Shown here piece after piece: positions 681 to 64,000 of a stretch of 64,000 bases of DNA. The stretch comes from Xestospongia bergquistia (lineage: Eukaryota; Porifera; Demospongiae; Haplosclerida; Petrosiidae), in contig OZ014422.1 in NCBI GenBank assembly GCA_963965975.1, forward strand, positions 3,495,155-3,559,154, read 5' to 3'. How positions within the stretch are numbered: position 1 is the first letter of the stretch; the number at the start of each line of letters is the position of its first letter. A program made the translations under genes and the position numbers. The notes under the pieces are model-generated. The model saw nothing but the letters and a program-made list of their open reading frames with translations. It made no database searches and had not been told where the DNA came from.

Positions 681-1660
681 AAATTCAGTTATAGCAATAA
701 ATTGTTTTTGACAGGACAGAGATTTCATACTGTGTTAATAACAAATTGAGCATGTGGTAATAAAGCTATATACTCATTGTAAATTAGTATGTGTGTCCTA
801 GAAGCCACATTGTTACTAAGTACTAACAATTCATGCCTACCTTTTAACCCTACAGAATCTAAACTGGAGTCTAACCTGACATATAGCTGACTATAAAGAT
901 ATTGTAAACAAATTTCCCATCATGCTTGTATGTGTTTCCAATCATTTGTTGGAAGAAGAGGCTATAGTAAAACAAGAAGAAACTAGATGTCATTGTGAGT
1001 TCAGAATAATAGTACTATAATAGTAACTGTAACGGAAGCTTTTCCTTCAGGCGCATCATGAAATATAATGCTAAATCATCAAAGAAACCACATGCATTTG
1101 TAAACCAATGTGTACCTGACAAAAGAAGATTTGCACTGTAGTCCCCTCGACTATATATAGCTGTGTGTCATACCAGTTGATATACACACCTTATTGTCAA
1201 TTGTCCAGTTTTCATTACTATGGTGAAGTCAACAAACATCAAGACAGCTGTAGTTTATTAGACATGTATATAATATTGATCGTATATCACATATAATTTC
1301 ATATATGTGTTAATATATGAATATCACATTTCACTTAATGTACATTGCTTGGTTTTATTACTTATTTTGCTATAAATAGACTTTGTATTGACTGAATGAA
1401 ACTCTGTCCTGTTTGTGCATGTCAGTAACAAGGTCTATTTAAAGGGTAACAGAAATGGTTTTCATATTCTGATTAAACTGAATGACCTTGTAGTAATATA
1501 CAAATATGTAAAAAAAATTGGTGCAATACTAGTCATGCTATTGCAGAAATCTATTATCTAAACAAAATGTATTAGTGAAATAATTATATTGCCCAGTCTC
1601 GTGGACGTTATTTCTGTTGACGTCATAATGGTAACACATTTCTGCACATGGGACTAAGAA
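681..1660. other. No gene seen; AT-rich intergenic
   Basis: No convincing coding frame. It contains short AT-rich stretches and, near 1425-1445, a string (caaggtctattta) that recurs at about 60122. That marks where the duplicated block shared with 60.1 kb resumes. Confidence 0.5.
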
Positions 1661-1849
1661 ATGCCTAACAGGTGTAGTTATTCTAGCATTCCCAGTGATA
1701 AAGTTACCCTCTATAGGTTTCCTAAAGATCCAGTAATGAGAAAGAAATGGATAGAGCAAGTTAAACGCACTAGAGATTGTTGGATTGGTCCATCAGAAAC
1801 TAGTAGTCTTTGTAGCAATCACTTCACGGATGACTATTACAAAATCTAG
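1661..1849 (+). pseudogene. THAP-type zinc finger fragment
   Basis: The 62-residue frame starts MPNRC and continues with YRFPKDPVMRKKWIEQVKR, W at the expected place, then LCSNHF. This is the order of a THAP (C2CH) DNA-binding domain: an N-terminal Cys, a RFP block, K/R-W, a W..SE block and C-x2-H. The second Cys expected two to four residues after the first is absent, and the frame stops right after the C-x2-HF block, so only the start of the domain remains. THAP domains occur in P-element-type transposases and host transcription factors; nothing further is visible here. The segment of about 400 bp around it is missing from the paralogous block at about 60.13 kb. Confidence 0.65.
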
Positions 1850-1864
1850 TGCACACCTCATGTC

Positions 1865-3330
1865 CTGTGGAGTCAAAGTATAAACTGCCTTGTTTGCATT
1901 GATTCAACTCTTTCTAACATTAGTTGCATACTAATACAACAATTCACAAGATCCATAAAGACATCAAATTCATCAAGACAATGAAAGGGACTTTCCATGG
2001 CCTCCAAAGAGCCATTATGAAAGAAATGATAGAAAAAGAGTGCTCACCACCAGAAAGAGATTGGCTGTTTTTGTAGCTTGATGTTTGTTCACCTTGACCT
2101 AAAATAAACATAAGTTGCTCTTCTAAAGTGGACAACATCATAGGACAATAACTTGTAATAGCTAGGTAATGTGAACTTTGAACCTAAAAACACAGAAGTT
2201 TGTAATACATGTAAGACTAAATCAACTAATACTATATATCTATTATGTAATTCATCAAATTTGGAAACAGATGTGTGGCACAACATGAACATAAACTATA
2301 CTAAATGTGAATTTGAACCCAAGACCTTCTAAAGAGAGCATATCCCCTAAAACACTAGAGCCTGGATGAGAAAGAGCATTTCATTTATACATAATGTGCC
2401 AATAAATTTCACTCTAGCCTATACATGTGCTGCAAAATTGAAGTTACAGAAATATCCAGCTTCTCCACAAATGAATGTAAGCAATATTACAAGTAAACTT
2501 AAATTGGAATGAACTCACAATGATTTCTAATGATTTCTATTAAAAATCAAAGTTTAGTGTTCCAAGGTAACCTCTTCTTTCAATAAAATGATAAAAATAT
2601 ATACAAGTATGTAGAGCTACTTGTTTACAAATGTCCCAATGACCTTTGATACATTTAGTTAAACTCTGGTTAAGACTCTGTAGAGTATAAAAATAAATTA
2701 ACACTAGGACTTTCACAGCTTATAAATGTTCCTAAGGTAACACTAACTATATATCTTTTACTTTATTGTACATGATCATGTAAGTCAAGTATGTTATACT
2801 CTGTCAAATTTCAGTTTGATCTCTGACTCAGGCTAGAAATAAGGTACATAGGAATACTTCAATACAGCCCTAATTGTCCAGGAAGTAAAACACTAGAAAT
2901 ATCATATAAAAAAATTTTGTCCTCTGCATACCACAATGATTTGATGTTACAAATAATCTGCATATTAATAATGAATGCTTGCACAAACATTCACTAATTG
3001 AAGCAAAACTAAGAAATGCTTCAATAAAGCTACAAGACCAAACCCAACATAACATGATGACATTTTTCATTTTTGAATTCAACAATACTGCTGTCAAACA
3101 CAAATTGGACAGAGCATACCAACCTTTAATGATTCCACTTCTAGCTCTTTTGATGTCAGTATGAACAGTCTCTAATTGTTCCTGAGCTTCAAGATAATTC
3201 TGCCTTATTATCTGATCTTGGCTAACTCTCCTATATCAGACACATTTACAACTATATACTTAATATATATCTCACTTGTCTGCTTCTTCAGTTAGTCTCT
3301 TTTCAATTTCTCTCTCTCATTTTTAACCTC
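1865..3330 (-). pseudogene. SMC6-like 3' end, copy A (broken)
   Basis: On the minus strand a coiled-coil exon (about 3160-3330) is followed by a stretch encoding TLEEQLMFILG, then the ABC/SMC signature LSGGE at 2043-2057 and [11 protein letters not shown]. In SMC6 this signature is followed by an ESPFRCLDEFDVYMD-like Walker B region; here a shifted frame reads a degraded version (VPFIVLMN). SMC6 is a core ATPase subunit of the nuclear SMC5/6 complex that acts in DNA repair. Frame changes, loss of the N-terminal half and the presence of a second broken copy at 60.13-61.83 kb show this is a duplicated relic, not a working gene. The family call is from motif recognition; SMC5 or RAD50-like ATPases are less likely because of the ALW...SPF context. 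Confidence 0.65.
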
Positions 3331-3806
3331 GCTGTGCGTGGGCGCATAGCGATAGTATGTCAGTGTGTGTGTGTGTGTCTGTTACCCCGGCAAATGGCTT
3401 TAAACTGCTTTAACTCGACAAACAAGGCACTGGTATCCACCAAACTATAGTGGATGGTAGCAAAACTTCTGTACTTCTTTAAAAATACTGCCAAAAGAAG
3501 CGTCAAACGAACAAAAAGCTTTAAAAGTCTGAAAAACCTTTGAAAAAAAGCACAGCTTTCAGTGAAGACTCGAAAATTCAACAAAAACCTCCTGCATACA
3601 ACTTATGACATTTTCTAACTTTGTAAAGTGAAAATTTTGCCAAAACACTTTGGAAAGTGATGACAGTATTACTAATTTTTGGCAGTTATCTTTGTCGATA
3701 CATTGAGCGTGAACTAAAAATACTAGCACCATAGCTGTCATTGAAGAATCACTAACGTTTACTAAGAAGTTGAAAAGTATTGGACCTTTTGTCAATTAGA
3801 GTGCAC
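3326..3806 (+). repeat. Dispersed repeat, copy A
   Basis: About 480 bp starting with cctcgctgtgcgtggg, a short (GT)n run and a CTGTTACCC block. It recurs at 33590-34243 (reverse orientation) and 55186-55722. The three copies differ by many substitutions and internal indels, so the family is old. No coding capacity is seen; it is likely a non-autonomous transposon. Copy A is cut off at a shared gacattgttaattcacac string that also occurs at about 61988. Confidence 0.8.
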
Positions 3807-3828
3807 GACATTGTTAATTCACACATGT

Positions 3829-6800
3829 TGGCTTTGGTTTCTATAATGTTAGAGGACTATTGATTCAAAATGTACACATAACACAGAGTGGAGGACCAAT
3901 GCCATCAACTAGTAACCTCTATCATAATGATACAGCTTTTTACTTTTATGAGGATCAGTCAGTAACATTACCTATTAGTTATTCCCGTGATATCACAATA
4001 CTTGGTGTAAATTTTAACAATTATTATTGTTATGCTATTCTTCTAATTAATCCTAATAAAAACACAACTCTTATTAATGTCAACATCAGTTCTTATTCTA
4101 GCACTGAGAAGTGTTCTATAAATCTACTTCCAAGTTGTGGGAGAACTTATATTTCAGTAATTTGAACAACAGAAGTGAAGTGCTTGATACATATGTACTC
4201 TTAAAATTTTTTAACAAAACTTAGTACCATATAATGATATAGCAAATGCTGCTAAAGTCCATACTGAGGAGCCTAAACCAATCAGTGCTTTTGTAGCTGG
4301 TATGACAGTTATATTTAGTCAAGGGGTCTACAGTGCTAATATAGTTTTATCAGATACAAATTTGTATGCAGACACAGGTGGTCTTTGATGGTTTAGCATT
4401 AATATTTAGTGATGCACTAATAGCAAAGACTTCTGTTCTTACACTTCAAATCAATAAAATCACTCCATTTTCCATGTTCTTACATCTTCAGATGTATCTA
4501 AAAAATTAGGAATTCTTATATCTCATTTAAATTATGAAAACGTTTATGTTGGAGTGCTTAATCCACTTATCCTCACAGAAACCACTAAGGGCCATAAAAG
4601 TCAGTTTATAAATTTGTACAATCAGTTGTTATGTTTGAAACATTTAACTATTCATTAAACACAACTCTAAATACTGGTAAATTGGTGTTTGTAAACACAA
4701 ATACTTTCAATTATTTGATGGGTTCAGTAATACAAGCATTAAACAGTGATATTTGTTTGAATGGTACAATGGTTTTCTATTACAACAAAGCTAGTCATGG
4801 AGCTGCTATTAGACTTGATTCATTATCACATCTCTTTATTTATGAATCTATACTAATGCATTTTTCATAAAAAATAGTGCTACATTTTATGGTGGTGCAA
4901 TTTACTTTCACTAGACAGAAATCTTCAAAATATAAACCCACTTTCTGGTATTTAAGTAGTGAGCAAAACTATTTTCCAACTTAAGGCCAAATTGATTTTT
5001 AAAGAAAACAGTACTATACTTGCTGGTAACTCTACTATGTATCTCCAGGATTCCGATTATAATGGAGAAATATCATTAGAAGTTGTGAGCACACACATTT
5101 GTAGCATCAATATTTCAACTAATAATGTTCAGATCAAAGTGTATCCAGCTAAAACAATTACAGCTGGTTTGAGAGCATTTGATTTTTGAATAGAAATTGT
5201 ACTTATGCCCAAATTTTTGCCAGATTAACCAGATTTAGAAAATGGTGGCACCATAATAAGCGTTATTCATGGACATATGACATCACATATTTGTTACAAA
5301 TTGAGCAACAAATTGAAACTGTCTACAGCAACAGGTGAATACTATTAAATATCCAACATTCCTAGAAAGTACAAGTAAAATAATGCATTTATATTTTGAG
5401 GTCTTGGGATATATTCCTACATCTTTATTCAAATTGGTTCCACAAACCTGTCCACCAGGATTTGTATACAATAGTAAGCATGTGTGCGTAGTCATTTCTG
5501 ACAGAGTTTGGTATCACATAATGTGAGATGATACTACATCTGTTTATATTCCACCTCAATCATGGCTGGGGGTTGTTGATAATGGAAACAATGTTTGTTA
5601 TACTAAATGCTGTCCTCCAGCATATTGTCTAACAAACACAACTATCAACATAACACAACTTGACATTATTTGTAGAGGAAATCATATGTGTGGTGAATGT
5701 AAGGAGGGCTACAGTGTTGTCTTAGGTAATCCTGGTTGCTACAAGTGTTTTAATACACTACATATTCTACTTGCTCTAACATTTGGTATACTAAGTAGTA
5801 TAGTGTATGTACTAGTGTTGTTTAGTTTGAGACTTACCATTGACTTGGGAATGAATGGAAGATTCATTTTTTGGCTAGATATTATTTGGCCAACTGTTAT
5901 ACCACATCTGATATGGCATTCACTAATACAGCTCTACAATAGATGATGCACTTGTTGATTTCCATCGTTGGAATATACCTGTATGTATAGCAAGTGATCT
6001 CAATGAGCTAGGCAAGACTGATATATTGTACATTTACCCTGTTTATTTTGGTATAATAGTTGTTGTCATTGTTCTCTTAAGTCAATTTTCTACAAGGATT
6101 GCTAACCTCATTGTTGGGTCCTCTTGTACAAGTACTTGTAACATTGGTGTACATCTCAGGTTCAGATCTGTTATCCATATCATTAATTGTTCCCACACCA
6201 GCACATATTCATTTTAATAGTATCAATAGTACTGGTAAGTTACTGGTTTGGTTTAAAGATGATAGTCTTCATTATGGTCACAATCCTTACCATATTGTTC
6301 TATTATGTGTGAGTATTGGACTACTATCTCTCTTCATCATTCCTTTTACATTGGTTGGATTATTTGGAGTTAAAATGCTTATGAGTTATTTCATTGTCAA
6401 GTACTTTTGTCCATTTATTGATGCTATACATAGACCTTACAAAGAGAAGCTAAGGTACTGGTTTGGAGTTAGGTTGGTTGTTCTTTCTCTCATCTATATT
6501 GTCATTGCTGTTCTACAAGGTAGCAACATAACTCTACAACTGTTACTGTTGATATTTATATTGGTTTCATTTACTATTGCACAAGCTATTGTCTTCCCAT
6601 ATAAGAACAAGATATTAAATACATTAGACTTGTGGTTTATGGTACTTCTGTTGATCAATTTTATCACATCTCTTTCTTTCTATCATCTCATCAGAGAACA
6701 GTACAGCTAATGCTATTATAACAACACTAGAGATTGTTCTCTGTTCCATTACTAACTTTGTCATTTTAATGTATCACATCTGTATATCAATGAGTCGTCT

Positions 6801-6945
6801 TTGATGTGTCAGGAAGTGTATAGAACATTGCCAACTTATTATAAAGACTAAACTAGTAGGAAGAGTGAGAAAGAATCTGATGATAGTCCATTGCTGAGAT
6901 ATGATGATTCTTTAAAGTAGGAAGATTGGGCACCAGATAATTAAC
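3829..6945 (+). pseudogene. Beta-helix/multi-TM protein, decayed copy 1
   Basis: Closely similar at DNA level to the intact gene at 8049-11837, beginning at its residue of about 100 (FGFYNV) and ending near its C-terminus. Pieces that can be read include the MQ-rich extracellular strands, the Cys-rich knot (CGECKEGYS, near 5690) and most membrane spans (6026-6710). The N-terminal signal peptide part is missing: the copy starts directly after a dispersed repeat. Several frame changes, stop codons and internal deletions (for example around 4380-4440, 4860-4920 and 5940) break it into at least six open pieces. It is a host-gene pseudogene lying head-to-tail with its intact paralogue. Confidence 0.9.
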
Positions 6946-8048
6946 ATATTAAATAGACAGAATTAGACATAATTTGTGTCATTGTGGATCTGTATATGTT
7001 TTATAACTGGTGAGCTTTGAGTTTTATATATTGTTGTAGTTTTATTTATAAAATTAAATCTCATTATTCAAACATTCATACAATGTTATAATAGTAGAAG
7101 CAAGTAAATTTGTTTTTCCTTCCACTTTTTTCAATAAAACTAGGATACTTAAAGGATGGAAGTATGTGCTTATACTTCAATTAAATTAAAAGAGAGATTG
7201 CATTTCTATTAAGATATAGAATTTAATGTAATTGTCATTGAGAAGATATATTGTTGTTTTTATGTATCATCAAAGATAGAATTCCAGCTTTGTGTTAACA
7301 TCCGAGACAAAATCAAAGCAGGTAATGTCTGCATGAATGATTTAATACAGTATTTCAATTACCAATATAGTCTTGAGATGCCCAATGTTTCTGCACTTTG
7401 GTTGCTGTTACCATAGTGTCCAGTTTACCAGCAATTCTCTAGACATTTCATTAACAAAACATGATGTTCTAAATAATTATTCTGAGCTCCAAGTTGCCCT
7501 CTTCTACCAGACACTGAGCTCCTCCTCCTCCCTTCTGATGTATATTACATCCTGTCTTCAAGTTCCTTATGTCTAATTAGTAACACATGAAACATTACCA
7601 TATGTAGTACATCAGAAACTTTGTTATGTCAACTTGTAGTATAGGCCATTTTTGCTTTACATTTTATAGCAATACTTTTAAATTAAGGCTTAAAATTGAT
7701 ATGCATTAATTGCCTTTAGAATAAGTTATTGCTTATTAAGTGTTATAATATAATAAAACTTTAAGTAGTAGTTACGTTCTGGGCTAAGTACTCCTTAAAG
7801 TGAAACTGTAAGACAGTAATTAATTGTTTATTTTGAGTGTGCTTGTTCAAACAGTTAGTTTATTAATGGTAAATGTTTTTGTAATTTGCATTATAGGTAA
7901 ACACGAAAAAAGGTTTTAATTGTTAATGTTTGCACTCTTCATACAAACTTTGTAAAATATAAATTTTAACATCTATTTTACTATAAAAAGACCCAAATAA
8001 GATGATTGTTCAAGTTACTACAACTAATCCTATCATATTAGACAAACA
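6946..8048. other. Intergenic, upstream region of the intact gene
   Basis: Mostly AT-rich and non-coding. It holds one recognisable relic at 7490-7624 (see separate entry). The last 100 bp before the ATG at 8049 contain no clear TATA box or upstream exon. Because the downstream protein begins with a good signal peptide, the 5' UTR probably starts in this stretch. Confidence 0.4.
7490..7624 (+). pseudogene. 5' relic of a beta-helix/multi-TM gene
   Basis: This 135-bp stretch matches 8163-8295 of the intact gene almost base for base (ctcttctaccagacac..., then ...agttcctt.tgtc and ttaccatatgtagtacatca). It corresponds to residues about 38-82 of that protein, just after the signal peptide. Nothing of the rest of the gene follows, so it is a stray 5' piece between copy 1, which itself lacks this part, and the intact copy 2. 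Confidence 0.85.
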
Positions 8049-11000
8049 ATGGTTCCTGTACAGTGGTTACTATTATTACCTGTGTCTAGTCTACTGGTAA
8101 TTCTTTCTGACAGTCTTTTACTAACAGAAAGTGAATCTTTGAATAATTATCTTTGTGGTCAAGATTACGCTCTTCTACCAGACACTCAGCTACTCCTCTC
8201 TACTGATGTACATCACATCCTGTCTTCAAGTTCCTTTTGTCAGGTTAGTAACACATCAAATATTACCATATGTAGTACATCAGAAACTCCTGCAACTATT
8301 ACTTGCAGTCATCATAATAATAGTTATGTATCTGTTGGCTTTGGTTTCTATAATGTTACTGGATTATTGATTGAAAATGTACACATAACACAGTGTGGAG
8401 GACCAATGCCATCAACTAGTACCCTCTATCCTAATGATACAGCTTTTTACTTTCATAAGGATCAGTCAGTAACATTATTTATCAGTTATTCCTCTGATAT
8501 CACAATACTTGGGGTAAATATTAATGATTATTATGGTTTTGCTATTCTTCTAATTAATCCTAATAAAAACACAACTCTTATTAATGTCAACATCAGTTCT
8601 TCTTCTACCAGTGGGCAGTGTTCTATAAATCTACTTCCGAGTTGTGGTGGATCAGGACTTATATTGTATTTCAGTAATTTGGACAACAGAACTGAAGTGG
8701 TGGATGCATATGTACTCTTTAAAAAAATGAATTTACGAGGAAATATAAACTCAGTACCATATAATGATATCATGAATGCAGCTAAAGTCCATGTTGAGGA
8801 GCCTAAAGCAATCAGTGCTTTTGCAGCTGGTATGACTGTTATATTTAGTCAGGGAGATTACAGTGCTACTGTTTTATTGTCACATACATATTGGAGTTCA
8901 GATATTGGTGGTGTTTTCAATGGATTAGCATTAATATTTAGTGATGCACCAATAGATAATGCCAATGTTACAATTTTACACTCTCGGTTTTATTACAATA
9001 TCTTTAATGGAAGAAGAACATTTGGAATAGGCTGTATGGTATATACAAGAATGGCTCCAACTTCTATTGAAAGTACATTTAGTGTACCTTGGGACATAAT
9101 CACTATTGCAGAGAGTTTTGTGCATGATAGATATTACCAATATAATTTTGATGATGACTTCAGTTCACGTATTCCTTCAAATCTATATAATCATTCCATA
9201 TTTCATGTCATTACATCTTCAGACATATCAACCAAACTCAAAATTTATGTCTCCAATTTCAAGTATTCTCAAAATTACATTGGGCTTCGTGATCCACTTA
9301 TCATCTCAGAAACAAATAGAGGGTATGTGCGTACCTACTTCAAAAACTTGTACTTCATTTTGCAATCAGTAGCTATAGTACAAGATTTCGACAATCCTTT
9401 TGACACAGCTCTAAATGCTGGAAAAATAGTTTTTGTTAATGCAGCCTCTGTATACTTCAATGGAAATAACACTTTCAAAAATATCACAGGCTCAGTAATA
9501 CAAGCATACAACAGTGACATTCATTTAAATGGTACAATGGTTTTCTATAACAACAAAGCTAGTCATGGAGCTGCTATTCGACTTGATTCATTATCATATC
9601 TCTACATTCATGAATCTACTAATGCTTCTTTCATAAATAACAGTGCTTTCTTTTATGGTGGTGCAATTTACTCTCACATGGACAGAAATCTTCCAAATAT
9701 AAACCCATTTTGTGCTATTCAAGTAGTGAGTAAAAATATTTCAGAAGTTAATGCCAAAATGATTTTTAAAGAAAACAGTGCTAAATTTGCTGGAAACTCT
9801 ATTTATGTGTCTCCACTTTATAAATGTCAACAATTGTACTTAAAAGAAGTCAATTCTAGTGACTTATATAGCAAATTGTTTTACTTCAAAGGAGAGGACA
9901 CCAATCATAATGGAGAAATATCATCAGTAGCTGTGAGCACACATCACTGTAACATCAATGGTTTAACTAATGACGTTCAGATCAAAGTATATCCAGGCAA
10001 AACAATTACAATTGGTTTGAGAGCATTTGATTTAAATGGGATTCCTACTTATGCTCAAATTTTTGCCAGATTAACCAAAGTTGGAAAATGGTGGCACAAA
10101 AATAATCATTATTCACAGACATATGATATGACATATCTGTTACCAATTGAGCAACAATTTCAAACTGTCTACAGCAACAGATGTACACTCTTAAATTTTA
10201 CAATATTCTCAGAAAGTACAAAAGATATAATGCATTTACATTTTGAGGTCTTGGGATACCTTCCTACATCTTCAATCAAATTGGCTCCACAAAACTGTCC
10301 ACTAGGATTTATATACAATAGTAATGTCAAATCATGTATGTGTAGTTCATTTCTGACAGAGTTTGGTATCACACAATGTGATATTGATACTACATCTGTT
10401 TTTATTCCACCTCAATCATGGCTGGGGGTTGTTGATAGTGGAAACATTGTTGGTTACACTGAACACTGTCCTCCTGGATACTGTCTACCAAACACAACTA
10501 TCAATATAACACAAACTGACATTATTTGTAGAGGAAATCGTATGGGATGGCTATGTGGTGAATGTAAGGAGGGCTACAGTATTGTCTTAGGTAGTACGGA
10601 TTGTTACAAGTGTTCTAATACACTACATACTGTACTTGCTCTTACATTTGGTATACTAGGTGGCATAGTGTATGTATTAGTGTTGTTTAGTTTGAGACTT
10701 ACCATTGACTTGGGAACGATTGGAGGATTCATTTTTTGGCTAAACATTATTTGGCCAGCTGTCATACCATCATCTAATATAGCAATCACAAATACTGGCT
10801 TACGATATATGGTCTATTTGTTAACTTCTATCAAATATCAATGGAACATACCAGTGTGTATAGCAAATGATCTCAATGAGCTAGGCAAGACGGCTACATT
10901 GTACATTTACCCTTTTTATTTTGGGTTAATAGTTGTTGTCATTGTTCTCTTAAGTCGATTTTCTACTAGGATTGCTAACCTCATTGTTGGGTCCTCTGTA

Positions 11001-11837
11001 CAAGTACTTGTAACGTTGATGTACATCTCATATTCAGATCTGTTATCCATATCATTAATTGTTCTCACACCAGCACATATTCATTTTAATAGTACCAATA
11101 GTACTGGTAAGTTACTGGTTTGGTTTAGAGACGGCAGTGTTCTGTATGGCCACAATCGTTACCATATTGTTCTATTATGTGTGAGTATTGGAGTACTGTC
11201 TCTCTTCATCATACCTTTTACATTGGTTGGATTGTTTGGAGTTAAGATGTTGAGGAGTCGTTTCATTGTCAAGTACTTTCGTCCATTTATTGATGCTATT
11301 CATGGACCTTACAAAGAGAAGCTAAGGTACTGGTTTGGAGTGAGGTTGGTTGTACTCTCTCTCATCTATATTGTCATTACTGTTCTACAAGGTAGCAATA
11401 TGACTCTACAACTGTTACTGTTGATATTTATATTGGTTTCATTTACTATTGTACAAGCTATTGTCTTCCCATATAAGAACAAGATATTAAATGCATTAGA
11501 CTTGTGGTTTATGGTACTTCTGTTGATCAATTTCGTGATATCTCTTTCTTACATGTCATCAGATAACACTATAGCTAATGCTATTGTTACAACAATAGAG
11601 ATTGTTCTCTGCTCAATTACTTATGTTGTCATCTTAATGTATCACATGCATATATCAATGAGTCGTCTTCGTTGTTTCAGGAAGTTTATACAACATTGTC
11701 AACTTATTATAAAGACTAAACTGATGAAGCAAACTTTGGAAAGGAGAAGCTCTGTAGATTGTCAATTGCTAAGGTTTGAGGATACAAATAATTACGAAGA
11801 ATGGAAATCAGATGATTACACAATTGTATATAAATAA
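8049..11837 (+). CDS. Large receptor-like protein: beta-helix ectodomain, Cys-rich knot, about nine TM spans
   Basis: A single uninterrupted 1262-residue frame. Residues 1-25 (MVPVQWLLLLPVSSLLVIL...) form a signal peptide, supporting the chosen start. Residues about 30-760 are rich in Asn, Ser and Thr, with many N-glycosylation sequons and repeated strands such as NNKASHGAAIRLDSLSYLYI and FYGGAIYS, typical of a right-handed parallel beta-helix (pectin-lyase-like) fold. Residues about 760-855 hold a Cys cluster ending CRGN..GWLCGECKEGYS...DCYKC, like GCC2/GCC3 or ephrin-receptor-type knots. From residue about 860 there are roughly nine hydrophobic spans (FGILGGIVYVLVLFS; YFGLIVVVIVLLS; LLLLIFILVSFTIVQAIVFP; IEIVLCSITYVVILMY) and a 75-residue charged cytosolic tail. 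It is thus predicted to be a plasma-membrane protein with a large glycosylated ectodomain. I cannot name a characterised family; the membrane part resembles TRP-like or GPCR-like multi-span proteins only in outline. Decayed or truncated paralogues lie at 3829-6945 and 62330-64000. Confidence 0.93.
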   Translation: MVPVQWLLLLPVSSLLVILSDSLLLTESESLNNYLCGQDYALLPDTQLLLSTDVHHILSSSSFCQVSNTSNITICSTSETPATITCSHHNNSYVSVGFGFYNVTGLLIENVHITQCGGPMPSTSTLYPNDTAFYFHKDQSVTLFISYSSDITILGVNINDYYGFAILLINPNKNTTLINVNISSSSTSGQCSINLLPSCGGSGLILYFSNLDNRTEVVDAYVLFKKMNLRGNINSVPYNDIMNAAKVHVEEPKAISAFAAGMTVIFSQGDYSATVLLSHTYWSSDIGGVFNGLALIFSDAPIDNANVTILHSRFYYNIFNGRRTFGIGCMVYTRMAPTSIESTFSVPWDIITIAESFVHDRYYQYNFDDDFSSRIPSNLYNHSIFHVITSSDISTKLKIYVSNFKYSQNYIGLRDPLIISETNRGYVRTYFKNLYFILQSVAIVQDFDNPFDTALNAGKIVFVNAASVYFNGNNTFKNITGSVIQAYNSDIHLNGTMVFYNNKASHGAAIRLDSLSYLYIHESTNASFINNSAFFYGGAIYSHMDRNLPNINPFCAIQVVSKNISEVNAKMIFKENSAKFAGNSIYVSPLYKCQQLYLKEVNSSDLYSKLFYFKGEDTNHNGEISSVAVSTHHCNINGLTNDVQIKVYPGKTITIGLRAFDLNGIPTYAQIFARLTKVGKWWHKNNHYSQTYDMTYLLPIEQQFQTVYSNRCTLLNFTIFSESTKDIMHLHFEVLGYLPTSSIKLAPQNCPLGFIYNSNVKSCMCSSFLTEFGITQCDIDTTSVFIPPQSWLGVVDSGNIVGYTEHCPPGYCLPNTTINITQTDIICRGNRMGWLCGECKEGYSIVLGSTDCYKCSNTLHTVLALTFGILGGIVYVLVLFSLRLTIDLGTIGGFIFWLNIIWPAVIPSSNIAITNTGLRYMVYLLTSIKYQWNIPVCIANDLNELGKTATLYIYPFYFGLIVVVIVLLSRFSTRIANLIVGSSVQVLVTLMYISYSDLLSISLIVLTPAHIHFNSTNSTGKLLVWFRDGSVLYGHNRYHIVLLCVSIGVLSLFIIPFTLVGLFGVKMLRSRFIVKYFRPFIDAIHGPYKEKLRYWFGVRLVVLSLIYIVITVLQGSNMTLQLLLLIFILVSFTIVQAIVFPYKNKILNALDLWFMVLLLINFVISLSYMSSDNTIANAIVTTIEIVLCSITYVVILMYHMHISMSRLRCFRKFIQHCQLIIKTKLMKQTLERRSSVDCQLLRFEDTNNYEEWKSDDYTIVYK

Positions 11838-13266: not shown

Positions 13267-15960
13267 TTATATTGTTATATTGGTATTATGGTTACCTATA
13301 GTCTCTACCAAAAGTGGGACAAAGGAAACCCCAACCTTTTGGCAAGTGTCTGTGTGAGCAGAATGTTTACGTTCCTCCCCAACAGAAAGGGTGTGGCCTT
13401 GGGACATGGAGGAGCTCTCCAGAGTAAGTTTCTGGAGAGGGGTCCAGGTCACCAGGTTTACCATGGGTCCAATGGTAGATAGATGTCAGCAGGGTGACTT
13501 TTAGAGCCTGGTATCAGTGATGGCATCTCTTTCCTTGGGCAAAGAGCTGCAGACTGGGCTGAAGAAGAGGGCATCCCTGATAGAGTCATGTCATTGTATA
13601 TGGTCTTTATTGTCGCCACATTCAATCTGATAATCACCATAAGGGTCACAGGATGATTTACAGAAGCGACATGGTTAAACCAACAGAGAACATTTTGATA
13701 CCAAGCTAGCACCAACGAAACTCTTTATCATGGAGGTGGAGACCTAAGGCAAGGGAAGGGGATCACATTGAGCCAATCTCCTGCATGGGGGATAGCAGAG
13801 GACAGGGCAAGAGCTATCAGATGAGAGGAAGGAGCATTTGAGAGGAGGGAGTCAAAGGTGGTTGATGGCTCTGGAAAGATGGAGTTGCTGGAGAAGGAAG
13901 TGAATAGCATCAGGTGAAGACCATTCCAGGTGCCTGGATGAGAACAAAACTCGCAAAAAGCTTCTGTAAGCTGAGAAGAGTGATTAGGTTAATATCCCAG
14001 GATCTCAGACGCCAGAAGCTGGGAGGAGGAGATTGAGCCAATATAGGCAGTGGGGAAGTGCAGAGAGGCCCTACAGATGCTGAGGCAACCTAGAAAGGTG
14101 GGGAGAGAAGCTTTGGTCCAAGACCAGTCTGGTAGAGGGCCACCCACCAGATCAGAGAGGGATTTGAATATAACAGTGCGAAGGAGGTAGTGGTGTCTCT
14201 GATATAGGAGGGAGGGCAAGTTCTGAGGGAGAAGACAAGACTGGACTTAAGGAGTGTTGCTTCCTTGTGCGAGTCCTGTAGGTCATGTAAGAAAGAAAGA
14301 TTGTGTTTTAGTTTTGTCACTCTCCTTAGCACAAAGGAATTACAGAAGTAGGGGTGCTTATAGAAGAGCCCAGTAAGACAAAGCCTTCACTGGTGAGTGG
14401 GTTGTGAGGTGGGGCTTTGGGGATGATGAGTAGGGAGAGGCCCCGGGTGGGGGCAATGATAGATAGAGCCAAGTTAAGATCATCAGGTGAACCACAAAGA
14501 GTACAATCATCAAGGTACCAGGAGTTTGCCAGTAGACCTGGGACCTGACTTTTCACTTTTTCAATGATGAAGTGGAGGGTCAAAGCAAAACCTAAAGGGC
14601 CCAGAGGGTCACCCTGTTGGACTCCACAAATGCTATTGATAGTGTGATCACCGAAGTGGAGGAGGGATCGACAACTATAGCAAAACTCTAGCCAGATTGA
14701 TAGACTAGGGATACAAGATCTCATTTCTTTAAACATCTCTCTGTGATCAATGGAGTTAAAAGTGTATGAGAAGTCTAGGAGGAGGGTCCGTTTATGAGAG
14801 GGAGGAATGAGGTGATCATTTTGGATGCTGCTGACACTGTGTACGGCAGCCTCAGCCCCAACTGGGATGCAGACACCCACTTGAAGAGGTGGGAGGATAT
14901 TAGCTGCTTCATGGTGTACTGTTCTAGTGAGGCACTTGGAGACCAACCGGCGTAGAACTTCCCCTACAGCTATGGGACGGTGGCCTCCATTTTTCTTCTG
15001 AGATGCAAGTAGGCATGAGGTCAGGTGGGGCTTGTCCTGAGCACAGCAAGTTGACAATCTTGGAAATAGGCCGCAGGGCTAAGGATGCTCTGGAGGGAGT
15101 TGGACAGAGGATTGCCTTCTTTAGGTGATTATCTCCGAAGCCTGTAGGACCTGGAGCAGACCTTGAAGGAAAAAATTTAAGACAATTCAGCAAAATGGTG
15201 TCACTAATCTCAGCAGGGGTGGGAGGTGTCCCATCTAGGAGTGTGGGTGCTTCATAAGGAGTTCATCTTGTAATTCAATGGTAGCCTTGCCAAACTGTTG
15301 GAGGAAAGAGCTTGAATGGCTTTACTGAAGTGGGCATCCTGAACTGCCCAACGGGCTCGACGCACATTGTCGGATCTCAGTGAGTTGGTAGAAAAATTGG
15401 TCTTCCTCAGTTTATGGCTGGCCTTGGACTCTTCAGCAATGACCTCCGCCCAAAGACCTGTGAAATCACCCTCAGACCAATGCTTTGCTCAGTCCTTGAC
15501 AATTCTTAGAGTGTCTTCCCAGGAAAGGTGTCTACCAGAAGGGTTGATTAAAATCCATTTAGCCAGCATCATGAACTTGCACCAAGAGTTGGAATTCAAT
15601 TCAGCGGTGACCAGACCTGACCACGTGTCACAGGCGCCTTTAGGTACATGCTGAAGTGTGAAAATATGGACACAGAAGATTGAAAGGTGAGAAGGGAGGC
15701 TAAACAAGGATGATGGGAGAGGACCATCCCTTGGTTGCTGATTTGGTGAGGGAGACACTGGATCAGGACTCGCGGGAGGGCACGTGGTGGAGAGAGTTAC
15801 GGTTGAAGATAGAACCTGGTTGGATGGGACATGGGTAATCATGATGTTACGACATCTTCCTGATCGACTGGGATGATAGGAAGAGCAGGGGCTCTTTGAA
15901 CTGACACAAGAACAGCGGAGGCACTTAGCATTTGAACCATTGCACTGACAATGTGGTCTG
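13267..15960 (-). mobile_element. LINE-type retrotransposon with restriction-like endonuclease, copy 1
   Basis: Minus-strand reading pieces run, in order: a Pro/Ser-rich N-terminus (about 15842), a conserved leader (TLQHVPKGACDTWSGL, then GDFTGLWAEV), the RT entry motif RSAPGPTGFGDNHLKKAI (about 15150), RT palm motifs LLLDFSYTFNSIDH, QQGDPLGPLGF and the catalytic YLDD (about 14515), and a C-terminal part (GVSFVPLLVETIG, about 13300) that in copy 2 of the same family follows an RPADI...FDVTV block. That block looks like the PD..D core of the restriction-like endonuclease of early-branching non-LTR elements. Catalytic RT residues are kept but the frame is broken several times (stops and shifts near 15060-15190, 14340 and 13740). 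No poly-A tail or target duplication was identified. It makes a cDNA copy of its own RNA at a nicked site when intact. Confidence 0.85.
14326..15057 (-). pseudogene. Reverse transcriptase core of LINE copy 1
   Basis: The longest open piece of the LINE, 243 residues. It includes fingers/palm motifs 2-7: GHRPIAVGEVLRRLVSK, then QVGV, LLLDFSYTFNSIDHREMF (motif A Asp), GVQQGDPLGP (motif B), SWYLDDCTLCG (motif C with both Asp) and the LGSSI block after motif D/E. The spacing is normal for non-LTR reverse transcriptases. It overlaps the next open piece (14090-14332) in another frame, indicating a frameshift just after the palm. Confidence 0.88.
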
Positions 15961-33031: not shown

Positions 33032-33239
33032 CTAGTTTGTGGTAAATAAGGTGGCAAACCAAGCCTGGCTTTATGTACTGATTAATGAAGACAAAATTGA
33101 GGATTTCAATGTCAATATTAAAACTGGGATTATAGACATTGCTGATTATGGAACAGTCCTACACTCTGGATGGGGGACAAGATCATCCTGTTGATATTAT
33201 ACGTAAATTGAGATTTAAGTCATATAATGATCCAGACTA
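33032..33239 (+). pseudogene. Unidentified 3'-exon-like fragment
   Basis: Open frame VANQAWLYVLINEDKIEDFN, then TGIIDIADYGTVLHSGWG; a one-base shift in a G run then gives DHPVDIIRKLRFKSYNDPDY and a stop at 33239. The composition and the end just before a stop suggest the last exon of a host gene. I do not recognise the family. Confidence 0.35.
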
Positions 33240-33352
33240 TTAGTGTGTGTTATTTGTATTGTGTTAATATGTCATCAGAAATTACTATATAATGATCCAG
33301 ACTATTAGTGTGTGTTATTTGTATTGTGTTAATATGTCATCAGAAATTACTA
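33223..33352. repeat. Exact 65-bp tandem duplication
   Basis: Positions 33223-33287 are repeated at 33288-33352 without a visible mismatch (tataatgatccagactatta...). The first copy contains the stop of the fragment above. Confidence 0.9.
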
Positions 33353-33589: not shown

Positions 33590-34243
33590 TGAAATGCACT
33601 GAAGTGCTTAACCTCTTATCCAGATACTTCCTTATCCTCCTCAAGTGACGTAATCTCACGTGATGCTCAAGATGATCATTGATGACTCAGCATTTCTCTT
33701 CAATCAAAGGGAAAATAGCTTTGCCTTTTAGTGAGTCTACTGGGTACTTTGCACTCTAATTGACAAAAAGGTGCAATACTTTCTAACTTCTTAGTAAAAG
33801 TTAATGATTTTCAAATGACAGCTATGGTGCTGTTGTTTTTAGTTTGCACTCAAAGTATTGACAAAGATAACTGACAAAAGTTAGTAAAACTGTCATAACT
33901 AACATAACATAAGTATTTTTGCAAAAACTCTCACTTCAAAAAGTTGGAAAATGTCATAAGATGTATGCTGGAGGTTTTTATTGAATTTTTGAGTCTTCAC
34001 TGAAAGTTGTGCCCTTTTTCAAAGGTTTTTCAGACTTTTAAAGCTTTTTGTTCATTTGATGCTCCTTTTGGCAGTATTCTTAAGAAATGCCGAAAGTTTG
34101 CTATCCTCCACTATAGTTTGGTGGCTACCAGTGCCATATTTGCTGAGTTAAAGCAGTTTAAAGCGATTTACCTGGGTAACAGACAGACAGACACACACAG
34201 ACTGACAGACTACTCGCTATGCGTCTACGCACAGCTAGGTTAA
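33590..34243 (-). repeat. Dispersed repeat, copy B
   Basis: Reverse-orientation copy of the 3326-3806 repeat, the most complete of the three at one end: it extends past the caattagagtgca block to agcacttcagtgcatttcat, which copy C also has. The opposite end reads cctagctgtgcgtaga on the minus strand. Confidence 0.8.
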
Positions 34244-55185: not shown

Positions 55186-55722
55186 CTCAATAACCTCACT
55201 GTGTGTGGGCACATAGCAAGGGTTACTGTAGTCTGTCAGTGTGTGTATGTGTGTCTGTTACCCAGGCAAATGGCTTTGAACTGCTTTAACTCTGCAAACA
55301 AGGCACTAATAGCCACCAAACTATAGTGGAGGGTAACAAACCTTCTGTATGTCTTAAGAATACTGCCAAAAGGAGCATAAAATGAACAAAAAGCTTTAGA
55401 AGTCTGAAAAACCTTTGAAAAAAAGCACAGCTTTCAGTTAAGACTCGAGAAGTCAATAAAAAACTCCTGGATACAGCTTACGACATTTTCCAACTTTTTA
55501 AAGTGTGAATTTTTTGCAAAAATACTTCTTTGGAAAGTTATGACAGTTTTACTAACTTTTGGCAGTTATCTTTGTTGATACATTGAACGCAAACTAAAAA
55601 TACTATACCATATCTGTGACTGTCTGTATTCTGTGGTATAAGTCACTTGAGGAGACTAAAAATAAAGAATGTCTCTGGATAAGACCACAGCGAGGCGAAG
55701 CACTTTAGTGCATTTCATTCAT
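55186..55722 (+). repeat. Dispersed repeat, copy C
   Basis: A third copy of the repeat seen at 3326-3806 and 33590-34243. Its two ends carry cctcactgtg (left) and, inverted, cctcgctgtgg (right, about 55690), a hint of short inverted ends. The right end finishes agcactttagtgcatttcat, as copy B. Confidence 0.8.
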
Positions 55723-56136
55723 CTTGTAATCCTATGTCCTCCTTTTGTGATCCATTTTTTTAGTTCTGTTATATCTAATGATTTCTTATGTTTCTGATCC
55801 TAAGTTCTTGATCTAACTTTTCCTTATTAATTGTAACACCTGTGATACTACAGATCACCTTTTACTAAAAAGTATCTGGTGATACAGAAATGCTTCAGTA
55901 GATTACATCATGTTATTAATGATCCTATATCACTAGCTATTGGTTTGTTTTCTGACTGGACTATGACTAAATGGAATGAAAGGGCAGTAGTTTGTGATCC
56001 TACAGCCATAAAATTTTACATCAAGTGATGGATTGATATATGGATGGATAAGCTGATAAAAAAGAATAATAGAGTGAACATAGGGTCTGTAGAAATAAAC
56101 AGATGAAGTTGGGAGTTTATTTACCACGTTATTCAT
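55723..56136. other. Spacer; possible Penelope target duplicate
   Basis: No gene. The 13-mer aaataaacagatg at about 56092-56104 recurs at about 58314-58327, just beyond the other side of the Penelope element, and may be a target-site duplication separated from the left end by about 32 bp of filler. Confidence 0.4.
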
Positions 56137-56602
56137 GTTTTTAAGAAAAAGATTATTTGAGCTTTATGAACGTGATAAAAATATATTCTGAAAAAAGTAC
56201 AGAACGTTTCGGCCAAAGGCCTTCATCAGCTGTATGAAACTAAGCAAAAAAAGTCACGCTATTTATAGCAATGCATGATTGTTTACAGTTAGTAATTGGG
56301 CTAAGAAGTGAAAGGTTGTCCCAGAAGGCTAAAAAGAGACGCTATTTTGTTCCGTGTGGAAGGTGAGAAACAACATCTTGGACCATAGAGCTCAAAACAG
56401 ACGCGAAGTAGTTAATTGTTGTGGGCGTGGCTAATGATTATTGATTTCGAACTGGTATGTTGTAGAGCAGAGATGTCCAGGTAGGATTGATGATAAAGCC
56501 TGGATCTAGGTTGATGGTGTTGCTGGTGGTTTTGATGAATATTGCTTCTTTGGTCTTTCTCTTCCACCAGCTGATCTCTTGTTCAAGTATTCTGCACTCA
56601 TC
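56137..56602 (-). repeat. Penelope inverted repeat, left
   Basis: Contains the 3' coding end, the 3' untranslated region and the minus-strand hammerhead motif. About 99% like the right copy by eye. Confidence 0.9.
56197..56235 (-). ncRNA. Hammerhead ribozyme-like motif
   Basis: Minus strand: stem I TACAG/CTGTA, core CTGATGA, a short stem II GGCC-TTT-GGCC (one extra A before it), core GAAA, and a tiny stem III made by the palindrome ACGT with the predicted cleavage after GTT. Very short stem III is the form described for Penelope-like elements. Lies downstream of the RT gene. Confidence 0.75.
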
Positions 56603-57838
56603 CCATAAAATCTTGTGTCCTGTATTGATGAAGTGGAGAGCCAAAGCATTGGTGGTATCACCATTTTTAATAGCCCTCTTGTGTTCAGCTTTTCTTATTT
56701 TCATTGTTCTGCCAGTTTTTCCAATGTATACAGCACCACATTCGCAAGGGATCTCATAGATGACTCCCACTTTATCCTCTGGTGGAGTAGGGATCTTGAC
56801 ATGTGATAGGGATCTCCTAAGTGTATTTCTGGAGGTAAATGCAGTTTTGATGTTGAGGGAACGACAAGCTTGACTGATACCTTCACTTAGGCCTTTGACA
56901 TAAGGAAGGACAAGGGTTCTCTTCTTTTCTTTTGTCAAGGATTCTTCAGATGATATTGGAGCAACTGTTGTACTCTTCTTAGGTTTAGATTGATTAAGGC
57001 CATAGTAAATCCTTCTAGATGGAAAACCGTTAGCTCTGAAGACGCCATGTAGTCTATTTATCTCATGGGGGAGTGTATCCTCTGAGCATACGTTGATAGC
57101 TCTCTCCTTGAGACAACTGATGATACCTGATTTGACAAGTGGATGGTGATTAGATCTGTAATTCAGGTATCTATCAGTATGGGTGGGTTTTCTGTAAACT
57201 GTTGTAGTCAGCCTGTTGTTATTCTTTGAGATGAGTACATCTAAGAAGGCGATGGAGTTGTTAACTTCCATCTCCATTGTGAACTCAATCCTATCGTGTA
57301 GGCTATTGATGTGGGACAGAAAATCCTGTAAGGAAGAGCTGTTGTGAGGCCAGATGACGAAGGTGTCATCGACGTATCTTCTCCACAGTTTTGGTTGTAG
57401 ATGAAAGGTTGAGATAGCAGTCATTTCAAAATCTTCCATAAAAATATTGGCTACTGTGGGTGATAGTGGTGAACCCATGGCTGTGTCGTCCGTCTGTTCA
57501 TAGAGTTTATCTCCAAACCTGAAGAAGGTAGATCTGAGGCATAGTTCTACTAGATGACAGATCTGAAGTGGGGTCATGGTGGTTCTATTTCCTAGATCTT
57601 CATCTGATATTAATCTATCCTTGATGATGGTGAGGACATCATTGATTGGTACCCTGGTAAACAAACTCTTAACATCAAAACTGACGAGTAAGTCATTTTC
57701 TTCCAGATTAAGATGAGAGATGGAACTAACAAAATGGGAAGAATTTTTGACATAACTGTCTGTTTTTCCAACAAGAGGGGAAAGAATCCTATTAAGTTCT
57801 TTTGCTAAGTTATATGTGGCAGATCCAATAGTACACAC
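56438..57838 (-). CDS. Penelope RT plus GIY-YIG endonuclease (5'-truncated)
   Basis: A 466-residue uninterrupted frame. It opens at CTIGSATYNLAKELNRILSP, within the early RT motifs (RPIV just upstream is still in frame). It goes on through LLVSFDVKSLFTRVPIND (motif A Asp), AMGSPLSPTVANIFMEDFE (motif B), LWRRYVDDTFVIW (motif C, both Asp) and IAFLDVLISKNNNRLTTTVY to YRKPTHTDRYLNY, and ends with a GIY-YIG nuclease: GVIYEIPCECGAVYIGKTGR, then EHKRAI and the Glu in KEAIFIKT. RT and nuclease residues all look intact. Full-length Penelope proteins are longer at the N-terminus by a few hundred residues, so this copy is 5'-truncated and the ATG is probably not the native start. Penelope elements prime reverse transcription at nicked or telomeric DNA. 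Confidence 0.93.
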   Translation of the reverse strand: MCTIGSATYNLAKELNRILSPLVGKTDSYVKNSSHFVSSISHLNLEENDLLVSFDVKSLFTRVPINDVLTIIKDRLISDEDLGNRTTMTPLQICHLVELCLRSTFFRFGDKLYEQTDDTAMGSPLSPTVANIFMEDFEMTAISTFHLQPKLWRRYVDDTFVIWPHNSSSLQDFLSHINSLHDRIEFTMEMEVNNSIAFLDVLISKNNNRLTTTVYRKPTHTDRYLNYRSNHHPLVKSGIISCLKERAINVCSEDTLPHEINRLHGVFRANGFPSRRIYYGLNQSKPKKSTTVAPISSEESLTKEKKRTLVLPYVKGLSEGISQACRSLNIKTAFTSRNTLRRSLSHVKIPTPPEDKVGVIYEIPCECGAVYIGKTGRTMKIRKAEHKRAIKNGDTTNALALHFINTGHKILWDECRILEQEISWWKRKTKEAIFIKTTSNTINLDPGFIINPTWTSLLYNIPVRNQ

Positions 57839-57849
57839 AATAGGTCTGA

Positions 57850-58315
57850 GATGAGTGCAGAATACTTGAACAAGAGATCAGCTGGTGGAAGAGAAAGACC
57901 AAAGAAGCAATATTCATCAAAACCACCAGCAACACCATCAACCTAGATCCAGGCTTTATCATCAATCCTACCTGGACATCTCTGCTCTACAACATACCAG
58001 TTCGAAATCAATAATCATTAGCCACGCCCACAACAATTAACTAGTTCGCGTCTGTTTTGAGCTCTATGGTCCAAGATGTTGTTTCTCACCTTCCACACGG
58101 AACAAAATAGCGTCTCTTTTTAGCCTTCTGGGACAACCTTTCACCTCTTAGCCCAATTACTAACTGTAAACAATCATGCATTGCTATAAATAGCGTGACT
58201 TTTTTTGCTTAGTTTCATACAGCTGATGAAGGCCTTTGGCCGAAACGTTCTGTACTTTTTTCAGAATATATTTTTATCACGTTCATAAAGCTCAAATAAT
58301 CTTTTTCTTAAAAAA
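57850..58315 (+). repeat. Penelope inverted repeat, right
   Basis: Inverted copy of 56137-56602; it begins at gatgagtgcag and ends before aaataaacag. Visible differences include single bases near 58043 and 58146. Confidence 0.9.
58217..58255 (+). ncRNA. Hammerhead ribozyme-like motif (inverted copy)
   Basis: Same motif on the plus strand in the right inverted repeat: CTGATGA at 58223-58229, GGCC/GGCC stem at 58231-58241, GAAAC at 58242-58246, and stem I TACAG/CTGTA. Confidence 0.75.
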
Positions 58316-62330: not shown

Positions 62331-64000
62331 GTTAAAAATTTATGTCTTTAATTTCAAGTATTCTCAAAATTACATTGGGCTTCGTGATCCATTTATAATC
62401 TCAGAAACAAATAGAGGCTGTGTTCATCCGTACTACAAAAATTTGTACTTCATTTTGCAATCAGTAGCTATAGTACAAGTATTTGACAATCTTTTTAACA
62501 CAGCTCTAAATGCTGGAAAAATAGTTTTTGTTAATGCAGCCTCTGTATACATCAATGGAAAGAATAACATTTTCAAAAATATAACAGGCTCAGTAATACA
62601 AGCATACAACAGTGACATTCATTTGAATGGTACAATGGTTTTCTATAACAACAAAGCTAGTCATGGAGCTGCTATTCGACTTGATTCATTATCACATCTC
62701 TACATTCATGAATCTACTAATGCTTCTTTTATTAATAACAGTGCTACCTTTTATGGTGGTGCAATTTACTCTCACATGAACAGAAATCTTAAAATAGAAA
62801 CCCACTTTGTACTATTCAAGTAGTGAGTAAACATATTTTGCAACTTAAGGCCAAAATGACTTTTAAACAAAACAGTGCTATACTTGCTGGTAACTCGATT
62901 TATGTATCTCCACTTTATAAATGTCAACAGTTGTACTTAAAAGAAGTCAATTCTAGTGACCTATATAGCAAATTGTTTCACTTCAAAGGAGAGGACACCA
63001 AACATAATGGAGAAATATCATCGGTACCTGTGAGCACACATCACTGTAGCATCAATGGTTCAACTAATGATGTTCAGATCAAATTGTGTCCAGGTAAAAC
63101 AATTACAATTGGTTTGAGAGCATTTGATTTGAATGGGATTCCTACTTATGCTCAAATTTTTGCCAGGTTAACCAAAGTTGGAAAATGGTGGCATAAACAT
63201 AAGCGTTATTCGTGGACATATGATATGACATATTTGTTATCAATTGAGCAACAATTTCAAACTGTCTACAGCAATAGATGTACTCTATTAAATTTTACAA
63301 TATTCTCAGAAAGTACAAATGATATAATGCATTTACATTTTGAGGTCTTGGGATACCTTCCTACATCTTCAATGAAATTGGTTCCACAAACCTGTCCACT
63401 AGGATTTGTATACAATAGTAATGTCAAATCATGTGTATGTAGTTCATTTCTGACAGAGTTTGGTATCACACAATGTGACATTGATACTACATCTGTCTAT
63501 ATTCCACCTCGATCATGGCTAGGGATTGTTAATAATGGAAACATTGTTGGTTATACTGAATACTGTCCTCCTGGATACTGTCTACCAAACACAACTATCA
63601 ATATAACACAAACTGACATTATTTGTAGAGGAAATCGTATGGGATGGCTATGTGGTGAATGTAAGGAGGGCTACAGTCTTGTCTTAGGTAATACTGATTG
63701 TTACAAGTGTTCTAATACACTACATACTGTGCTTTCTCTTACATTTGGTATACTAGGTGGTATAGTGTATGTACTAGTGTTGTTTAGTTTGAGACTTACT
63801 ATTGACTTGGGAACAATTGGAGGATTTTTTTTTTGGCTAAATATTATCTGGCCAACTGTCATACCACCATCTGATATGGCAATCACAAATATTGTCTTAC
63901 GATATATGGCCTATTTGTTAACTTCTATCAAATATCAATGGAATATACCAGTATGTATCGCAAATGATCTCAATGAGCTAGGCAAGACAGCTTTATTGTA
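62330..64000 (+). pseudogene. Beta-helix/multi-TM protein, copy 3 (5'-truncated, runs off window)
   Basis: Homologous to the intact gene from its residue of about 397 (KIYVFNFKYSQNYIGLRDP) onward. The N-terminal 395 residues and signal peptide are replaced by duplicated 3'-flank DNA. One base is missing near 62790 (RNLK... instead of RNLPNI), after which the frame stays open from about 62800 to the window end, through the Cys knot (WLCGECKEGYS, about 63645) and the first membrane spans. Apart from the missing start and the single frameshift, conservation is high, which suggests a recent loss. The C-terminal spans lie beyond the window. Confidence 0.88.

What the first reader, a model, noticed from the sequence alone, without database searches (positions are those of the whole stretch)
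8049..11837. Intact single-exon beta-helix / Cys-knot / multi-TM receptor-like protein
A signal peptide, a roughly 730-residue Asn-rich beta-helix ectodomain, a CxxC knot and about nine membrane spans in one intronless 3.8-kb frame is an unusual architecture, and I cannot match it to a characterised receptor. Its family is expanding and dying locally (three copies plus one relic within 64 kb), a pattern typical of fast-evolving recognition genes. Function is unknown.
Basis: partly seen in the sequence, partly recalled or inferred. Interest (0 to 1): 0.72.

Follow-up and report, generated by a model that had tools for sequence, protein, structure and literature searches.

The report
Large beta-helix nine-span receptor-like family
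One intact gene here belongs to a very large animal gene family whose proteins appear to carry a long beta-helix outside the cell on a nine-span membrane core, and whose outer surface evolves unusually fast, as expected of cell-surface recognition receptors.

Summary
Window 8049-11837 is an intact 1262-codon frame: signal peptide, ~835-residue sequon-rich ectodomain with beta-helix-type repeats, a module with 10 invariant Cys, nine predicted membrane spans (N out, C in) and a conserved tail. The other local copies are broken (3818-6941; 62332 to the edge) or a relic (7472-7620). Genome-wide it is one of a very large intronless, tandemly arrayed family: 27 of the 33 family loci fetched first have ORFs of 1200 aa or more; 11 of 12 divergent loci that I picked (19-27% identical) are complete and align over the whole length, the 12th is open to the fetched edge; merging three capped searches gives 201 candidate long frames. 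One paralogue passes Pfam's Beta_helix cut-off, so the helix is supported by sequence; both AlphaFold runs failed (pLDDT 36 and 30). Codon models favour positive selection in the ectodomain; the membrane part has 0 and 5 such sites in two clades, the five on predicted outer faces. No Pfam, PDB, viral or prokaryotic match explains the core; a fungal TRP-like match is weak and inconclusive. Best reading: a fast-evolving cell-surface recognition receptor family; function is inferred. The genome is an animal's (three Wnt loci); species not identified.

The parts
8049..11837 (+). Intact single-exon gene, 1262 aa plus stop
   Evidence: 26 further loci with ORFs of 1200 aa or more
8049..8123 (+). Signal peptide (residues 1-25)
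   Evidence: hydropathy peak 7-25, family mean peak 1-19
8124..9878 (+). N-terminal ectodomain, right-handed beta-helix by sequence (residues 26-610; borders approximate)
   Evidence: POMP_repeat above the NCBIfam cut-off (21 vs 15 bits); Chlam_PMP 27 of 27 at E<=10; homologous paralogue L036 passes Beta_helix PF13229, E=7e-10
9543..9809 (+). Three PMP-like rungs (residues 499-512, 524-542, 573-587); the first and third were read by eye
   Evidence: conservation 0.86-0.92 per block at 476-550
9966..10283 (+). Spacer with conserved PG (residues 640-745), perhaps a beta-sandwich (inference)
   Evidence: no significant PDB match
10296..10613 (+). Cys-rich module (residues 750-855), 10 invariant Cys; its last third resembles DUF7630 below that family's cut-off
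10626..11642 (+). Nine membrane spans (860-880, 888-906, 950-970, 982-1004, 1038-1060, 1094-1113, 1121-1141, 1147-1167, 1178-1198; borders set by hand), N out, C in; span 2 is the weakest
   Evidence: K+R 0.195 per residue in inside loops and tail, 0.068 in outside loops; 84 sequons in outside loops, 1 inside, over 27 members
11301..11648 (+). Spans 6-9, weak match to PF06011 (fungal TRP-like), inconclusive
11643..11834 (+). Cytoplasmic tail with conserved LLRxDDxFxYExW-type motif
3818..6941 (+). Copy A, broken (stops, frameshifts, gaps)
7472..7620 (+). Relic of the 5' coding part, 85% over 151 aligned columns
62332..63998 (+). Copy C, no match to residues 1-396, frameshift near 62793; continues beyond the window and is broken again there
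1060..1164 (-). Small fragment of residues 263-297
   Evidence: E=1e-5

Best explanation
A cell-surface recognition receptor of a very large, expanded animal family. Shown by sequence: secretion signal, sequon-rich ectodomain with beta-helix repeats, conserved Cys module next to the membrane, nine spans with N out and C in, conserved tail, tandem birth-and-death, purifying selection overall, and positive selection concentrated in extracellular positions. Inferred: the helix presents variable loops that bind ligands (microbial, allogeneic or food-derived glycans or proteins); the Cys module, perhaps disulfide-linked to the invariant Cys of the first outside loop (C937), couples binding to the nine-span core, which signals, gates ions or carries the ligand inward.
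For: 27 of the 33 loci L001-L033 (the window copy included) give ORFs of 1200 aa or more. Of 12 divergent loci picked by me, 11 gave complete ORFs of 1175-1408 aa and align end to end; the 12th is open for 1376 codons to the fetched edge. Profile-profile homology E=1.3e-69 and 1.2e-59 over 1091 and 1028 columns. Topology. At the nine span positions, 14 of 14 aligned members have hydropathy of 1.0 or more, and 6 to 9 of the nine reach 1.5. dN/dS of residues 26-449 vs membrane part: 0.53 vs 0.26 (C8/C12 set), 0.74 vs 0.39 (C1 22-Mb set), 0.48 vs 0.25 (C1 9-Mb set). M8 beats M8a in both clades tested (2dL 59 and 67); with a separate tree per segment it does so at p<0.05 in 5 of 6 ectodomain segments and 1 of 2 membrane segments. 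The five membrane-part sites (903, 922, 1019, 1177, 1180) lie in outside loops or at outer span ends of the model. No Asp, Glu, His, Lys or Arg is invariant over the 14-member alignment, which argues against a conserved enzyme site.
Against: No ligand, expression or signalling evidence. No usable structure model. The M7/M8 code is my own, with fixed trees and a capped optimiser, and gene conversion among tandem copies can mimic positive selection. One ectodomain segment shows no signal (C1 450-740, p=0.35) and one membrane segment does (C1, p=0.0022). Per-site omega correlates between clades as much in the membrane part (rho 0.34) as in the ectodomain (0.30), so that correlation is no special support. 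A free hydropathy scan finds only 6-9 C-terminal peaks of 1.5 or more in divergent members, span 2 being weak, and 3 of 11 divergent ORFs lack a clear N-terminal hydrophobic stretch (L036, L042, L043). Large tandem expansion also fits sensory or adhesion roles.
Confidence: 0.56

Rival explanations
1. A ligand- or force-gated channel of the fungal TRP-like (Flc/Pkd2, PF06011) kind, the beta-helix acting as sensor arm.
For: Fragments of spans 6-9 match PF06011 positions 286-395: window protein E=0.0092 and 0.016 for two cuts, as the only family reported; L006 E=5.5e-5; 25 of 38 fragments at E<=10, best 3.9e-4; positions roughly colinear. In a whole-genome search one of only two PF06011 matches (E=1.18) lies in a family member. 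Nine spans and a signal peptide are also Flc features (recalled).
Against: All scores are below the curated cut-off. 0 of 10 divergent fragments match. 5 reversed control fragments gave no TRP hit but chance hits to other families down to E=0.009, and a divergent fragment hits FUSC at 0.0054; another family, DUF7027, is hit by 18 of 38. 5 fragments of spans 1-3 or 4-5 do not match. Full-length and TM-only scans do not report it.
Confidence: 0.2
2. An adhesion or matrix-anchor protein without signalling.
For: Large sequon-rich ectodomain with a Cys module; adhesins often use beta-helices (recalled).
Against: A nine-span core with low dN/dS (0.25-0.39) and a highly conserved polar span 4 (0.96 at 976-1000) is more than an anchor needs.
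Confidence: 0.15
3. A membrane-tethered polysaccharide enzyme of the pectin-lyase fold.
For: Such enzymes often have this fold (recalled); a non-significant profile hit to GH110 (E=2.5).
Against: No invariant charged residue over the 14-member alignment; no enzyme family among the significant matches, apart from a Tyrosinase match in 1 of 27 members at E=4.8e-4, not looked into.
Confidence: 0.04
4. A seven-span G-protein-coupled receptor with an odd ectodomain.
For: N out, C in; large ectodomain.
Against: Nine spans; no 7tm family among the listed matches at E<=10 over 27 full-length members or 14 TM-only members.
Confidence: 0.03

Closest known systems
Right-handed beta-helix proteins (Pfam Beta_helix PF13229; Chlam_PMP PF02415 / POMP_repeat TIGR01376)
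   Same: Repeated FxNNxA..GGAI rungs; paralogue L036 passes both Pfam cut-offs, the window protein passes TIGR01376
   Different: Here joined to a Cys module and nine helical spans in an animal; the window protein itself is below the Pfam cut-offs
Chlamydial polymorphic membrane proteins
   Same: PMP repeats; expanded family (recalled)
   Different: They end in an autotransporter beta-barrel (recalled); here helical spans
DUF7630 (PF24633)
   Same: Cys pattern at the end of the Cys module
   Different: Below the curated cut-off in each member listed by hmmscan; in the six-frame genome search 5 of 150 places pass it, one of them at the L042 locus. No paper in the library names it
Fungal TRP-like / Flc / Pkd2 proteins (PF06011)
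   Same: Signal peptide, extracellular domain, nine spans (recalled); weak match in spans 6-9
   Different: Below cut-off, absent from the 10 divergent fragments scanned, other ectodomain
Expanded sponge recognition families (SRCR, NLR)
   Same: Many copies: SRCR domain 389, 408 and 375 in three of the four demosponges tabulated, 174 in the fourth (PMC12465263, passages seen)
   Different: Unrelated domains

Membership tests
Right-handed beta-helix ectodomain | Match to curated repeat or helix models | tested here: met
   TIGR01376 21 vs cut-off 15 bits for the window protein; PF13229 39.2 vs 25.9 and PF02415 30.9 vs 20.6 for homologue L036. The window protein itself is below the PF02415 cut-off and has no PF13229 match
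Right-handed beta-helix ectodomain | Three-dimensional coil of parallel strands | tested here: inconclusive
   AlphaFold on window-only rows: pLDDT 30.4, pTM 0.26
Fungal TRP-like (PF06011) | Score over the curated cut-off (28.5 bits) | tested here: not met
   best 22.6 bits; whole-genome best 15.2
Fungal TRP-like (PF06011) | Signal peptide and nine spans, N out (recalled as an Flc feature) | tested here: met
Fungal TRP-like (PF06011) | ML-like N-terminal domain (recalled) | tested here: not met
   no such family among matches at E<=10
GPCR | Seven spans and a 7tm profile match | tested here: not met
Chlamydial Pmp autotransporter | C-terminal autotransporter barrel (recalled) | tested here: not met
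   helical spans, no autotransporter match
Recognition receptor (functional class) | Binds a ligand and signals | not testable with these tools
   needs binding or signalling assays

The most novel reading that the evidence does not exclude
An undescribed class of animal recognition receptor: a beta-helix ligand arm on a nine-span core, encoded by about 200 or more intronless, mostly tandem genes, diversifying by birth-and-death and positive selection on the outer face, serving self/non-self or microbe discrimination (or chemosensing) in an animal without adaptive immunity.
Probability: 0.35. Interest if true: 0.87.

Novelty: new variant of a known kind. Interest (0 to 1): 0.62.

Why it matters
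If right, one of the larger gene families of this animal is an unannotated receptor class. If the host is a sponge, it offers a concrete, testable gene set, with predicted hot spots and topology, for the open question of how such animals tell symbionts, food and kin apart. It also raises whether a nine-span core known from fungi was reused in early animals.

Tried and rejected
AlphaFold on window-only alignments gave unusable models (pLDDT 36.1 and 30.4), so no fold search was run. Six PDB sequence searches found nothing significant (best E 1.9). Pattern-based scans of the viral (3) and prokaryotic (2) collections found no relative at E<=1e-3. TRP-like membership was tested and left inconclusive. 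A silicatein test for a siliceous sponge gave nothing: the two pieces read from the C9 peptidase cluster carry Cys at the active-site motif and so look like cathepsins (motif recalled). The species was sought in papers by assembly size without success. Literature: in ten searches none of the listed titles or abstract starts describes such a family; only the top 10-20 of each list were shown and the library is open-licence only. Two papers were looked into by passages only (PMC12465263; PMC13044578). From memory, similar proteins occur as unnamed genes in other sponges and cnidarians; this could not be tested.

Full report
What is there. The frame at 8049-11837 is real and intact: 1262 aa. It begins with a signal peptide, has 20 N-glycosylation sequons before residue 860 and three more at residues 1014, 1017 and 1117, and ends in nine hydrophobic spans. 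Over 27 family members the mean hydropathy gives nine C-terminal peaks. Under an N-out model with span borders that I set by hand, K+R density is 0.195 per residue in inside loops and tail against 0.068 in outside loops, and 84 sequons fall in outside loops against 1 inside. The membrane part is among the most conserved stretches (0.66-0.96 per 25-residue block from 876 to 1025 and 0.73-0.94 from there to 1200).

Ectodomain. The window protein passes the NCBIfam POMP repeat (21 vs 15 bits) but is below the Pfam cut-offs for Chlam_PMP and DUF7630. All 27 close members match Chlam_PMP at E<=10, best 3e-6; of 14 diverse members 11 do at E<=1, and 3 match Beta_helix. L036 passes Beta_helix (39.2 vs 25.9 bits) and Chlam_PMP and is, with two others, homologous along its length to the window clade (hhalign E=1.3e-69, 1091 columns). 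A second group of six divergent members is homologous too (E=1.2e-59, 1028 columns). Between helix and Cys module lies a stretch with a conserved PG, perhaps a beta-sandwich (inference). The Cys module has 10 Cys invariant in 14 of 14; another invariant Cys, C937, is in the first outside loop. AlphaFold, given only four window rows per job, failed.

The family. The protein search in the own genome (146 Mb, 21 contigs) gave 38 match rows, with 37 of 975 candidates scored. Of the 33 loci L001-L033, 27 have ORFs of 1200 aa or more. DUF7630 gave 150 matches at E<=10, 150 of 319 candidates scored, 5 over the cut-off; its control rang in 2 of 14 known genomes, none over the cut-off. Chlam_PMP gave 150 at E<=1, 150 of 596 scored, flagged over the cut-off; its control rang in 1 of 14. 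Merging the places by my own rule gives 289 loci, of which 201 have a stop-to-stop frame of 1100 codons or more, on 13 contigs; of 112 neighbouring pairs closer than 30 kb, 109 are on one strand. Only 20 of the 289 carry both Pfam tags, since each list is a capped part. These are candidates, not each verified; capped scoring may hide more. A strict DNA motif for the Cys module gave 22 places against 0 for the reversed control; a looser one 118 against 11. I picked 12 divergent loci with long frames: 11 gave ORFs of 1175-1408 aa, and the 12th is open for 1376 codons to the fetched edge. Identity to the window protein is 19-27% for the 11. A free hydropathy scan finds 6-9 C-terminal peaks of 1.5 or more in them; at the positions aligned to the nine spans, 14 of 14 aligned members reach 1.0 at each span and 6 to 9 spans reach 1.5, span 2 being weakest. 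8 of the 11 have an N-terminal hydrophobic stretch of 1.5 or more; L036, L042 and L043 do not, perhaps because the start was chosen mechanically.

Local birth and death. In the window one copy is intact; A, C and the relic are decayed, and more broken pieces lie beyond the edge. Blocks upstream of A (1837-3323) recur upstream of C (60140-61732) at 84-85%, which points to segmental duplication rather than retrocopy.

Selection. Mean dN/dS is 0.43, 0.57 and 0.37 for the whole protein in three clades; residues 26-449 are 0.53, 0.74, 0.48 and the membrane part 0.26, 0.39, 0.25. My own M7/M8a/M8 code on two clades (8 and 10 sequences) favours M8 (2dL against M8a 59 and 67), with 8% and 11% of sites at omega 2.45 and 2.83; sites with posterior over 0.9 number 19 in the C8/C12 set, all before residue 858, and 31 in the C1 set, 26 before 858 and 5 in the membrane part. 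With separate trees for shorter segments the signal stays in 5 of 6 ectodomain segments at p<0.05 and in 1 of 2 membrane segments, with lower statistics. The five membrane-part sites lie in outside loops or at outer span ends. The between-clade correlation of per-site omega is as high in the membrane part (0.34) as in the ectodomain (0.30), so it speaks for shared constraint, not specially for recognition. Gene conversion remains a caveat.

Membrane core identity. Full-length scans report no convincing membrane family. Fragments of spans 6-9 match fungal TRP-like PF06011 (window E=0.0092, L006 E=5.5e-5; 25 of 38 at E<=10), but 0 of 10 divergent fragments do, and 5 reversed control fragments gave chance hits down to E=0.009, though none to TRP. 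I treat this as a lead only.

Tail. [DE]xxxL[LI] occurs in 20 of 38 tails against a shuffled mean of 3.6; 27 of the 38 are close relatives sharing the tail, and the window protein has only the DxxLL form, so this is weak support for a sorting role.

Organism.

Judgement. Likely a fast-evolving cell-surface recognition family; ligand, signalling and fold are not shown.

Noticed in passing
window 56132-58320: 466-aa frame (56441-57838, -) with a reverse transcriptase domain (RVT_1 E=5.8e-9) and a GIY-YIG-like stretch by eye; a 471-base inverted repeat at 99% (56132-56602 / 57850-58320) whose first arm overlaps the frame's end. Looks like a recent Penelope-like element (name recalled).
   Followed up: partly
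window 14329-15057 (-): Reverse transcriptase fragment (RVT_1 E=3.4e-12) in a GC-rich island (48% in 14-16 kb against 30-41% in the other 2-kb blocks).
   Followed up: partly
window 3323-3805, 33750-34243, 55229-55617: A dispersed repeat of about 370-500 bases, 85-87% alike, three copies in the window; one sits just before broken copy A.
   Followed up: no
window 33222-33352: Perfect 65-base tandem duplication (2.0 copies, 100%).
   Followed up: no
G000 C9:1502757-1523415: Tandem cluster of peptidase C1 (cathepsin-like) match pieces, apparently intron-bearing genes; the two pieces read keep Cys at the active-site motif.
   Followed up: partly
C-terminal tails of the window clade (L001-L033): Tail motif LLRxDDxFxYExW is kept while neighbouring residues vary: a candidate adaptor-binding site.
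   Followed up: partly
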